Below are positions 59,074 to 63,125 of a stretch of 64,000 nt of DNA, piece after piece. Made by a program: the position numbers and the translations under genes. The notes beneath the pieces were generated by a model. It ran no database searches and was not told the DNA's origin. It saw nothing but the letters and a program-made list of their open reading frames with translations. The stretch lies in contig NZ_CP124038.1 of the NCBI RefSeq assembly GCF_030436345.1, positions 186,001-250,000 of the forward strand. Direction: 5' to 3'. Positions within the stretch are counted from its first letter, which is position 1. Each line of letters starts with the position of its first letter. The stretch is from [Borrelia] tanukii (GTDB taxonomy: Bacteria > Spirochaetota > Spirochaetia > Borreliales > Borreliaceae).

Positions 59074-59838
59074 ATGAATTATACAAAATTCCAAGAATTT
59101 ATATCGGAATTTTTGGGAACATTTATACTATTAGCTCTAGGAACTGGATCTGTCGCAATGACAGTATTATTTCCCTCAAGTCCTGAAATATCAGGAGAAA
59201 TAATAAAAGGGGGATATACAAATATAGTATTTGGATGGGGATTGGGTGTAACATTTGGTATTTACACATCAGCAAGAATTAGTGGAGCACATCTAAATCC
59301 AGCCGTTAGCATAGGATTAGCAACTGTTGGAAAATTTCCCGCTTCAAAACTTTTACATTACATTGTAGCGCAAATATTAGGAGCATTTACAGGCGCATTA
59401 ATGACACTTGTCGTATTTTATCCTAAATGGATAGAAATAGATCCTGGCCTAGAAAATACTCAAGGCATAATGGCAACTTTCCCTGCTATTCCTGGATTTT
59501 TGCCTGGATTTATTGATCAAATTTTTGGAACTTTTTTGCTAATGTTTTTAATTTCTGTTGTTGGAGATTTTGTAAAAAACCATAATGATAACCCATTTAT
59601 TCCATTCATTGTGGGATCAGTGGTTTTAGCAATAGGAATAAGTTTTGGGGGAATGAACGGCTACGCTATTAATCCTGCAAGGGATTTAGGACCAAGAATT
59701 TTACTCTTATTTGCTGGATTTAAAAATCATGGCTTTAACAACCTAAGCATATTTATTGTGCCAATAATTGGTCCAATAATTGGAGCAATTTTAGGCGCTA
59801 CAATCTACGAATTTACACTAAAAAATAACAAAGACTAA
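59074..59838 (+). CDS. glpF: Glycerol uptake facilitator
   Basis: 254 residues, six membrane helices and two half-helices of the aquaporin fold. The two NPA motifs are intact: HLNPAVS with Asn75 and AINPARDLGPR with Asn200; the D after the second NPAR is typical of glycerol channels. It lets glycerol enter for lipid synthesis and energy. AAGGAG lies 8 bases before the ATG, and glpK follows after 37 bases. Confidence 0.97.
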   Translation: MNYTKFQEFISEFLGTFILLALGTGSVAMTVLFPSSPEISGEIIKGGYTNIVFGWGLGVTFGIYTSARISGAHLNPAVSIGLATVGKFPASKLLHYIVAQILGAFTGALMTLVVFYPKWIEIDPGLENTQGIMATFPAIPGFLPGFIDQIFGTFLLMFLISVVGDFVKNHNDNPFIPFIVGSVVLAIGISFGGMNGYAINPARDLGPRILLLFAGFKNHGFNNLSIFIVPIIGPIIGAILGATIYEFTLKNNKD

Positions 59839-59875
59839 AAGATATTGATCTTTGTCAAAATAAAAAGGAAGAATT

Positions 59876-61381
59876 ATGAAATACATTTTATCTATTGATC
59901 AAGGTACTACTAGCTCAAGAGCAATAGTATTTGATAAAAATGCAAACATAAAAGGGCTTGCCCAAAAAGAATTTACTCAAATTTATCCACAACCAAGTTG
60001 GGTGGAACACGATCCTAACGAAATATGGGGGTCACAACTTGGAGTTATAACAGAAGCTCTTGCAAATTCGGGAATTTTACCAAATGAAATTGATGCTATT
60101 GGAATAACTAATCAAAGAGAAACTACAGTTGTATGGGAAAAAAGTACAGGAAAACCTATTTATAATGCAATAGTATGGCAAGACAGAAGAACTGCAAAAA
60201 TTTGCGACCAATTAAAAAAAGAAGGAAAAGATAAAATTATTTTGGAAAAAACAGGCTTGGTGCTAGATTCTTATTTTAGTGGAACAAAAATACTGTGGAT
60301 CTTGGATAATGTAGAAGGTGCTAGACAAAAAGCTGAAAATGGTGAATTATGCTTTGGAACAATAGATACATGGCTATTATGGAATCTGACTCAAAAAAAA
60401 GTACATGCGACTGATTATTCTAATGCTTCAAGAACATTATTGTTAAACATTAGAACATTAGAATGGGATGATGAACTTTTAAGTATATTGAATATTCCAA
60501 AAGCAATTTTGCCAGAACTTAAAGAAAGTTCTACAATATATGGCGAAACAGATAAATCACTATTTGGAGCGGAAATTCCTATTGCAGGAATTGCCGGAGA
60601 TCAATTTGCAGCGACATTTGGACAAGCCTGTCTTAAAAAAGGTATGGCTAAAAACACATATGGAACTGGTTGCTTTTTAACAGTAAATATAGGTAAAGAA
60701 CCAATTATTAACCACGAAAAGCTTTTAACTTCAATTGCATGGGGAAGAAAAAAATCCGTAACCTATGTTCTTGAAGGAAGTGTTTTTATTGGTGGAGCCG
60801 TAATCCAGTGGCTAAGAGACGGTCTTGAATTTTTCAGAAAAAGTTCAGATGCAGAATCATTAGCAAGCTCTGCTCCAGATAATGGAGGAGTTTATTTTGT
60901 CCCAGCATTCGTTGGACTTGGTGCACCCCATTGGGATTCCTATGCAAGAGGAACAATCCTAGGAATAACAAGAGGATCAACAAAAGCTCACATTACAAGA
61001 GCTGCTCTTGAAAGCATAGCATTTCAAAGTTTTGACATACTAAATACCATGAAAAAATCTGTTCCCAACTTTGAAATTCAAGAACTAAGAGTAGACGGGG
61101 GAGCAAGTCAAAACAATCTATTAATGCAATTTCAAGCTGATCTTTTAGAATGCAAAGTTGTAAGACCTAAAATAACAGAAACAACCGCTCTTGGGGCCGC
61201 TTATCTTGCAGGACTTGCATCAGGTTATTGGCAAAGCGCCGAAGAAATCATAAGCCTTTGGCAAGCAGATAAAATATTTGAACCTTCAATGCCAAAAAAT
61301 CAAAGAGAAAATCTTCTTGAGAATTGGAACAAAGCAGTTGAAAGATCAAAATCCTGGATACAGGATTCTCATAATCTATAA
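59876..61381 (+). CDS. glpK: Glycerol kinase
   Basis: 501 residues, full length. FGGY family: [15 protein letters not shown] at the start, [54 protein letters not shown] and the C-terminal [21 protein letters not shown]. It traps glycerol as glycerol-3-phosphate in the cytoplasm, for GlpD or lipid synthesis. AAGGAAG precedes the ATG. Confidence 0.98.
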
Positions 61382-61404
61382 AAGTTCAAAACAAGACGTT
61401 TATA

Positions 61405-61467
61405 ATGCTATTTAATAAAATTAAAACAAATGATCTTTGCGAATTTTTCAAATCTAGCTTTAATTAA
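61405..61467 (+). CDS. Possible very small ORF between glpK and glpD
   Basis: A 20-codon frame (MLFNKIKTNDLCEFFKSSFN) in the 107-base gap. I recall a small gene, BB0242, at this point in B31, which is the main reason to list it. It has no clear ribosome binding site, so it may be untranslated spacer. Confidence 0.2.
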   Translation: MLFNKIKTNDLCEFFKSSFN

Positions 61468-61488
61468 GAAGAAAAGAAATTAACTAAA

Positions 61489-62985
61489 ATGGAGGAATAT
61501 TTAAATTCCATGAATAATAACAAAGAAACAAAATTAAAAGATCTTGAAAATCAAGAATTTGATCTCATAATAATTGGAGGAGGCGCAACAGGTCTTGGCA
61601 TCGCAGTAGACGCAATTACAAGAGGATATAAAGCAATACTTATAGAAAAATTTGATTACGCAAAAGGAACTTCCTCTAGATCAACCAAATTAATTCACGG
61701 TGGTGTAAGATATTTAGCTCAATGGAATATTTCTTTGGTTAAAGAAGCTTTGCATGAAAAAGCCATTCTTGAAAAAAATACACCCCATTTAATTAACGAA
61801 TGTGCGCTTATTACTCCTATTTATAACATTTTAGAAATACCTTATTATTATTTTGGATTAAGCTATTACCACAATCTTATGGGGAAGGAAAAAGCTACCA
61901 AACGCAAAACTAAATTACTATCCAAAGCATCTACTATTGAAAAAGCTCCTAATATTAAAGCAGAAGGCCTTAAATGCTCTGTTCTATATTACGATGATTC
62001 ATTCGATGATGCTAGAATGGCAATAACATTATTAAGAACTTTTACCGAAAAAGGGGGCATTGCCCTTAACTACACAGAGCTTAAAAAATTCAACAAGGAA
62101 AACGGAAAACTTTCGGGGGTCATTATACAAAACAAATTGTCAAAAGAACAAATTTCATTGAAAAGCAAATGCATAATAAACGCAACAGGAATATTTTCAG
62201 ATGAAATAAGAAGATTAGATGATGAAAAAGCTTTAAACATTATCAAACCTTCTCAAGGTAGCCATTTAATAGTCAAAAAAGACAAATTCCCCAAAAATCA
62301 TGCAATATTAATGCCTAAAACTAGTGATAATAGAATTTTATTCGCTATTCCTTGGTATGATAGTGTTGTTTGCGGAAGTACCGACATTCCAATAAAAGAA
62401 ATAGAAGAAGAACCTAAAAGATTTGATGAAGAGATTGACTTTATAATAAATAATTTAAACAACTATTTAAATATTAAGATAGAAAAATCAGATATAAAAA
62501 GTGTATATACTGGAATAAGACCATTAATAATGGATCCAAAAGCTGAAGGCAACACTTCAAAAATTTCAAGAAATGAAAAAATATTTATATCAGATTCAAA
62601 TCTTATTACAATAGCGGGGGGAAAATATACTACATATAGAAAAATGGCAGAAAAAACCTTGCTCAAGGCCATAGAAAAAAATTTAATACCAAATTATACA
62701 TCAACCACAGAAAATTTAAAGTTACACGGGTATCTTAAAAAAGAAGAAGCAATAAAAATTCCTGAACCTTTTAGAGCTTATGGTAGTGACTTTGAAATTC
62801 TAAAAAATATGGAAGGTTTTGACAAAAAAATACACGAAAATTTGGATTTAAATGAAGCTCAAATAGCTTTTTCAATTGAATTTGAGCAAGCCAAAACTAT
62901 TGACGATGTTTTAGCTAGAAGAACAAGGTCGTTACTTTTAAATCCTCAAGCTACAATTGAAGCTGCTCAAGAGTTGCTGAAATAA
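61489..62985 (+). pseudogene. glpD: Glycerol-3-phosphate dehydrogenase GlpD, C-terminus lost by frameshift
   Basis: 498 residues before the stop. The FAD-binding start is LIIIGGGATGLGIAVDAITRGY, followed by KGTSSRSTKLIHGGVRYL and, near 370, TIAGGKYTTYRKMAEKTL. At the end ARRTRSLLLNPQATIEAA is followed by QELLK and TAA. One extra base near 62968 would restore PRVAEIMMKKLNKSEEW and so on to TAA at 63075-63077, which fits the C-terminus of the mitochondrial-type GlpD family. The protein may still be made without its last helices. ATG at 61510 (Met8) is an alternative start, with GGAGG 14 bases before it. Confidence 0.85.
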
Positions 62986-63077
62986 TGATGAAAAAATTAA
63001 ATAAATCTGAAGAGTGGAAAAATGAACAAATAAAAAACTTTTTAGAGATAAGTAAAAAATATTTAATTGAAAATTAA
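62968..63077 (+). pseudogene. Out-of-frame remainder of glpD
   Basis: In the frame shifted by one base, 36 codons run from the break to TAA at 63075-63077: VAEIMMKKLNKSEEWKNEQ and then a helix ending KKYLIEN. The tandem ATGs at 62985-62990 could in theory restart translation, but no ribosome binding site is near. Confidence 0.75.
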
Positions 63078-63098: not shown

Positions 63099-63125
63099 AA
63101 AAGGGATTGTTAAACAATCCCTTTT
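63099..63125. terminator. Bidirectional terminator between glpD and the YaaR gene
   Basis: A perfect 12-bp stem, AAAAGGGATTGT and ACAATCCCTTTT, with a 3-base loop TAA, lies between two convergent genes. A-runs and T-runs on both sides let it work in both directions. Confidence 0.85.

What the first reader, a model, noticed from the sequence alone, without database searches (positions are those of the whole stretch)
62940..63077. Single-base frameshift removes the conserved end of GlpD
After ATIEAA the open frame ends in QELLK-stop, but adding one base near 62968 gives PRVAEIMMKKLNKSEEW and a helix up to a stop at 63075-63077. That restored end matches the pattern of mitochondrial-type GlpD (LPRIVELMxxELNW) from memory. 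Thus about 36 residues are lost from an enzyme linked to persistence in the tick. It is either a strain-level mutation (for example after laboratory passage) or a sequencing error.
Basis: partly seen in the sequence, partly recalled or inferred. Interest (0 to 1): 0.7.

Follow-up and report, generated by a model that had tools for sequence, protein, structure and literature searches.

The report
Shortened GlpD enzyme in Lyme-group spirochete
A glycerol-metabolism gene in a Lyme-group spirochete genome has lost its last stretch through a one-base change, and two sister species show separate breaks in the same end of the same gene, which hints that the loss is recurrent rather than a one-off accident.

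Summary
In the window (a Lyme-group Borrelia, most likely B. tanukii) glpD runs 61489-62985 and gives 498 residues. Of 18 congeneric genomes (one per species, window included), 15 have 527 or 529 residues, and the family-type end is still readable in another frame of the window up to 63077. B. turdi TPT2017 (497 residues) and a B. garinii genome (509) carry in-frame stops. So 3 of 18 species have independent lesions that remove 18 to about 30 residues, against 0 of 126 copies of seven control genes (3 of those 126 are 5-6 residues short). The rest of the gene is not decayed in the window, so its event looks recent. Best reading: a real, recent, probably impaired glpD allele, tolerated because glpD is dispensable in culture. 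A sequencing error in the window cannot be excluded: the B. tanukii genomes of PMC11389397 rest on older long reads alone, and no reads or sister strains were available. The other two lesions are substitutions, less prone to that error. An ordinary kind of mutation in a known gene; the recurrence is the interesting part.

The parts
61489..62985 (+). glpD, shortened: FAD-dependent glycerol-3-phosphate dehydrogenase, 498 residues, early stop at 62983-62985
   Evidence: Pfam DAO 5.3e-45 and partial DAO_C 1.4e-10
62967..63077 (+). out-of-frame remnant of the conserved GlpD end, undecayed, stop at 63075-63077
   Evidence: remnant matched on its own as G000:C1:248958-249074
62985..63077 (+). possible 30-residue restart reading frame overlapping the glpD stop (TAATG); expression not shown
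59074..59838 (+). glpF, glycerol facilitator, intact
   Evidence: Pfam MIP 1.5e-43; full-length match in 18 of 18 congeneric genomes
59876..61381 (+). glpK, glycerol kinase, intact
   Evidence: Pfam FGGY_N 5.1e-84 and FGGY_C 1.2e-45; match in 18 of 18 congeneric genomes, two of them 6 residues shorter
63100..63124 (.). inverted repeat after glpD, probable terminator
   Evidence: read by eye in the alignment, where all 17 rows have it or a paired variant (L008 not aligned); the consensus scan did not report it

Best explanation
The window carries a real and recent allele of glpD in which a one-base loss removes the last helix region of the enzyme. It is one of at least three independent C-terminal truncations in Lyme-group species. 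The FAD domain is left intact, but the conserved end of the DAO_C domain is missing, so the enzyme is probably unstable or weakly active. Such alleles are tolerated, and perhaps favoured, in culture: glpD mutants of B. burgdorferi grow normally in rich medium, and under nutrient stress glycerol kills strains that have GlpD and spares those that lack it. Shown here: the lesions, their independence, the undecayed gene body, the intact neighbours. Taken from papers: dispensability and GlpD-dependent killing. Inferred: impaired activity, the helix (no structure was computed), and culture or storage as the setting.
For: Different lesions at different codons in three species, each absent from the other two. 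Names: B. turdi TPT2017 (L027 equals L003 over the 1400 bases compared, both 497 residues); B. garinii (G009:C4, 100% over 12 kb to NZ_CP018747.1); window near B. tanukii (cp26-like contig 98.6-99.1% to three records, next species 92%). 3 of 18 lose 18 or more residues against 0 of 126 copies of seven control genes: Fisher 0.0017, or 0.015 leaving the window out. In 345 and 343 orthologous ORFs of 400 kb each, the glpD stop removes more of a gene's end than any other in B. garinii (18) and B. turdi (30), after leaving out a 116-residue ORF over the glpK-glpD junction and stops within 25 residues of a start. Window genome: 5 of 686 orthologous ORFs are split by frameshift, so the assembly is not error-ridden, and the glpD site holds no one-letter run above 2. 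Gene body: 2 private amino-acid changes against 3 private silent ones. PMC8929704 sections 7, 8, 18 and PMC3131272 abstract.
Against: No reads and no second strain of the window's species. The B. tanukii genomes of PMC11389397 were assembled from P6-C4 long reads alone (section 29), where single-base gaps are the typical error (recalled). The same paper gives fewer than 10 passages for its isolates, which weakens long laboratory passage as the cause. No activity data for any short GlpD. Three of the 126 control copies are also shortened, by 5 or 6 residues; counting any shortening gives 3 of 18 against 3 of 126, Fisher 0.026. No p-value allows for glpD having been picked for its lesion. The private-change ratio is no clear sign of decay: intact B. 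japonica has 10 to 4 and intact G013 11 to 12.
Confidence: 0.5

Rival explanations
1. The one-base difference in the window is a consensus error of a long-read-only assembly; the strain's GlpD is full length.
For: PMC11389397 section 29: no B. tanukii isolate is among the 11 sequenced with HiFi reads, so they belong to the P6-C4 group. Gene body undecayed. Another 4 of 686 ORFs in this genome are frameshift-split, and two of those four sites have a one-letter run of 6 or 7 nearby.
Against: No one-letter run above 2 at the glpD site; few splits in the chromosome; two sister species have lesions in the same segment that are substitutions.
Confidence: 0.3
2. The tail is dispensable: the short protein works, and the recurrent truncations are neutral trimming of an unimportant end.
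For: Lesions gather near the end and the body stays conserved; the profile match to E. coli GlpD stops at 481 of 501; the B. garinii form, 509 residues, keeps the stretch that the Pfam DAO_C match covers in an intact congener. Two other genes also show shortening by 5-6 residues in some congeners.
Against: The tail is kept in 15 of 18 congeners, in 16 of 18 genomes of the sister genus and in distant homologues including 3DA1 and 2RGH.
Confidence: 0.15
3. Split GlpD: ribosomes that stop at 62985 restart at the overlapping ATG and make the tail as a separate 30-residue peptide that docks on the body.
For: TAATG overlap in the window; an ATG as second codon after the stop in B. turdi.
Against: The intact gene already has methionine codons at these places, so the overlap can be chance; no such ATG lies just behind the B. 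garinii stop; nothing shows expression.
Confidence: 0.04

Closest known systems
GlpD (BB0243) of Borrelia burgdorferi, aerobic-type glycerol-3-phosphate dehydrogenase of the glp operon (PMC3131272)
   Same: Gene order and domain architecture; the shared part is 91-96% identical to the 17 congeners (which of them is B. burgdorferi was not established)
   Different: The window's protein ends about 30 residues early
Alpha-glycerophosphate oxidase / GlpD family structures 3DA1, 2RGH, 2QCU
   Same: FAD domain and the region of the DAO_C domain; in 3DA1 and 2RGH the profile of intact proteins covers the tail
   Different: 3DA1 and 2RGH have the tail that the window lacks; the match to 2QCU does not extend over it
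Engineered glpD mutants of B. burgdorferi (PMC3131272, PMC8929704)
   Same: Loss of GlpD function is the likely consequence
   Different: Here the change is spontaneous, partial and in other species

Membership tests
GlpD / FAD-dependent glycerol-3-phosphate dehydrogenase | N-terminal FAD-dependent oxidoreductase domain (DAO) | tested here: met
   PF01266 5.3e-45, residues 25-349
GlpD / FAD-dependent glycerol-3-phosphate dehydrogenase | C-terminal DAO_C domain, complete | tested here: not met
   PF16901 over its cut-off but only profile 37-111 of 126, against 37-124 in an intact congener; a truncated member by descent
GlpD / FAD-dependent glycerol-3-phosphate dehydrogenase | NCBIfam equivalog cut-off for glycerol-3-phosphate dehydrogenase | tested here: not met
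   Window 272.4 bits against a cut-off of 360 for NF008899; the intact congener (273.3) also falls short, so this says nothing about the truncation
GlpD / FAD-dependent glycerol-3-phosphate dehydrogenase | Place behind glpF and glpK | tested here: met
   59074-62985, same order in congeners
GlpD / FAD-dependent glycerol-3-phosphate dehydrogenase | Enzyme activity on glycerol-3-phosphate | not testable with these tools
   none
Pseudogene | Disrupted frame against orthologues | tested here: met
   0 of 17 congeners share the lesion
Pseudogene | Decay beyond the first lesion | tested here: not met
   Body and remnant tail undecayed

The most novel reading that the evidence does not exclude
Working GlpD is a liability in part of the life of Lyme-group spirochetes or in their handling: glycerol-rich, nutrient-poor conditions kill cells with active GlpD, so C-terminal knock-down alleles are repeatedly selected, and several reference genomes carry them.
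Probability: 0.2. Interest if true: 0.6.

Novelty: new member of a known kind. Interest (0 to 1): 0.35.

Why it matters
GlpD supports B. burgdorferi in the tick and its best growth on glycerol (PMC3131272, abstract). If genomes that stand for several Lyme-group species carry shortened glpD, comparative metabolic models and tick experiments with these strains may not represent wild populations; and a repeated loss would make the published GlpD-dependent killing by glycerol a testable source of selection.

Tried and rejected
Same lesion shared by relatives: rejected, 0 of 17. Inheritance of one event by B. turdi and B. garinii: a tree of the glpK end plus the first 480 glpD codons pairs them at 85/73 and counts 2 changes for the mere state 'short', but their stops are at different codons and neither has the other's, so three events are needed; the tree is otherwise poorly resolved. 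A first run of the tree lost 15 of 20 rows to a motif filter and was discarded. Generally error-ridden assembly: rejected at 5 splits in 686 ORFs; G003 itself shows 8 in 675. An earlier, differently built count over the first 400 kb found glpD the only ORF of 358 split over two frames. Programmed frameshift: no slippery heptamer seen by eye; not tested further. The displaced tail alone gave one Pfam hit below its cut-off (DUF7660, 0.0057), taken as chance. Literature: the listings show, in titles and abstract beginnings, no report of truncated glpD in B. tanukii, B. turdi or B. garinii; most of the listed papers were not opened. In-paper searches found no 'truncat' in PMC3131272 or PMC8929704, no 'frameshift' in PMC3131272, and no 'frameshift' or 'glycerol' in PMC11389397 or PMC13155636. 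'Borrelia tanukii' with PacBio gave nothing. Strain: the window is perhaps Hk501(T), one of four B. tanukii isolates in PMC11389397, since plasmids of three B. tanukii genomes, not identical to the window's, are listed; this is inference. I had first counted the three controls as full length.

Full report
What is there. The window lies at C1:186001-250000 of a genome of 1,011,368 bases in 4 contigs. Its cp26-like contig is 98.6-99.1% identical over 12 kb to three B. tanukii plasmids and 92% to the next species, so the genome is most likely B. tanukii. glpF (59074-59838, Pfam MIP), glpK (59876-61381, Pfam FGGY) and glpD (61489-62985) follow each other on the + strand. glpD gives 498 residues and stops at 62983-62985; the family-type end is encoded in another frame up to 63077.

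Comparison in the genus. Of 18 genomes (one per species, window included), 15 have a GlpD of 527 (8) or 529 (7) residues and 3 are short (17 loci read, L008). The three short ones are the window (498, one-base length change), G015 (497, in-frame stop) and G009 (509, in-frame stop). G015 is B. turdi TPT2017, NZ_QBLM01000001.1. G009 is B. garinii: its contig C4 has 27,673 bases, the length of record NZ_CP018747.1, and is 100% identical to it over the 12 kb compared. Each lesion is absent from the other two, so they are three events. Behind each lesion the codons are still nearly those of the intact copies, so the events look recent.

Wider comparison. This rests, with 12 loci read, G020 and G023, and G026 and G029 judged from the table alone. 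Across the phylum 110 of 149 genomes have some match; in 17 of the 27 best rows outside the family it reaches query residue 505 or beyond, in 10 it ends earlier. The profile of 37 intact proteins covers the tail in 3DA1 and 2RGH but stops at residue 481 of 501 in E. coli GlpD, 2QCU. The tail is therefore an old part of the family, though not equally conserved in all branches.

Is it more than chance or error? Controls in the same 18 genomes: glpK, glpF, gpsA by its C-terminal domain and open frame and four other genes of 508-521 residues from the window, 126 copies in all. None loses 10 residues or more. Three are short by a little: glpK of G010 and G017 by 6 residues, the gene in G007 by 5. 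The control queries are the window's own proteins (gpsA excepted), so a shortening in the window itself would not show. 3 of 18 against 0 of 126 gives Fisher 0.0017; leaving out the window, 2 of 17 against 0 of 119 gives 0.015; counting any shortening, 3 of 18 against 3 of 126 gives 0.026. None of these allows for the fact that glpD was picked for its lesion, so the recurrence is suggestive, not proven.

Genome baseline. With 800 kb each, 686 of 695 ORFs of G003 have an orthologue in the window's genome, and 5 are split by frameshift, glpD being the longest. The reverse test gives 8 splits in 675. In-frame stops inside matches number 20 in the window's genome: 15 within 25 residues of the start, taken as start-site differences, and 5 that cost at most 7 residues at the end. 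In 400 kb of G009, 345 orthologues show 3 splits and 9 stops; in 400 kb of G015, 343 show 2 splits and 9 stops. In both, the glpD stop removes most of a gene's end (18 and 30 residues). I left out stops within 25 residues of a start and a 116-residue ORF that lies across the glpK-glpD junction (one stop in G009, one split in G015). The glpD site of the window holds no one-letter run above 2, while two of the other four split sites have a run of 6 or 7 nearby; the stretches looked at were 21 to 52 bases long, and 25% of random 21-base stretches hold a run of 5 or more.

Decay. Over the first 490 codons the window's glpD has 2 private amino-acid changes and 3 private silent ones, B. turdi 1 and 7, B. 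garinii 6 and 1; but intact copies reach 10 and 4 (B. japonica) and 11 and 12 (G013), so this gives no clear sign of relaxed constraint.

How it probably works. GlpD turns glycerol-3-phosphate into dihydroxyacetone phosphate. In B. burgdorferi, glpD mutants are fully infectious in mice but reach lower densities in nymphal ticks (PMC3131272, abstract). They grow like wild type in rich medium (PMC8929704 section 7). [quoted passage not shown] glpD loss suppresses several gpsA defects (section 18). gpsA is present with an open frame of 354-364 in 18 of 18 genomes here. So a weakened GlpD costs little in culture and may help under glycerol stress. That the short enzymes are weak, and that culture or storage selected them, is inference; PMC11389397 states fewer than 10 passages for its isolates (passage).

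Uncertainty. PMC11389397 lists four B. tanukii isolates (passage) and, in section 29, PacBio-only P6-C4 assembly for all isolates but the eleven made with HiFi reads, among which no B. tanukii isolate is named. If the window is one of these four, a consensus error remains possible (I give 0.3). The B. turdi and B. garinii lesions are substitutions and less exposed to that error. PMC13155636 was seen in passages only.

Verdict. Observation confirmed, interpretation partly supported, an ordinary kind of change in a known gene, with a recurrence that did not surface in the paper listings seen here.

Noticed in passing
G026:C223:203841-204301; G028:C1:245883-247865 (sister genus): glpK is a decayed remnant in both, glpF is a remnant in G028 and without a match in G026, while glpD is full length by the table in G026 and read as full length in G028. 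GlpD seems to be kept there without glycerol uptake.
   Followed up: partly
G021:C1:258776-264430; G018 (sister genus): G021 has both glpK and glpD in two pieces; G018 has no match to glpF, glpK or glpD.
   Followed up: no
G003:C1 about 414555-415584 and its orthologues: A 342-residue frame in G003 is split at about residue 135 in G000, G009 and G015; either a fusion in G003 or a shared old split.
   Followed up: no
G003:C1: Eight of 675 ORFs of the window's genome are frameshift-split in G003, against 5 of 686 the other way.
   Followed up: no
L216 and L217, end of glpK (G017 = L016/L022 B. yangtzensis, G010 = L017/L023 B. japonica): glpK ends 6 residues early in both, at the same query position 496, one by TAG and one by TAA.
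   Followed up: no
window 63100-63124: Inverted repeat between glpD and the convergent gene on the - strand, probably a two-way terminator; seen by eye, not reported by the consensus scan.
   Followed up: no
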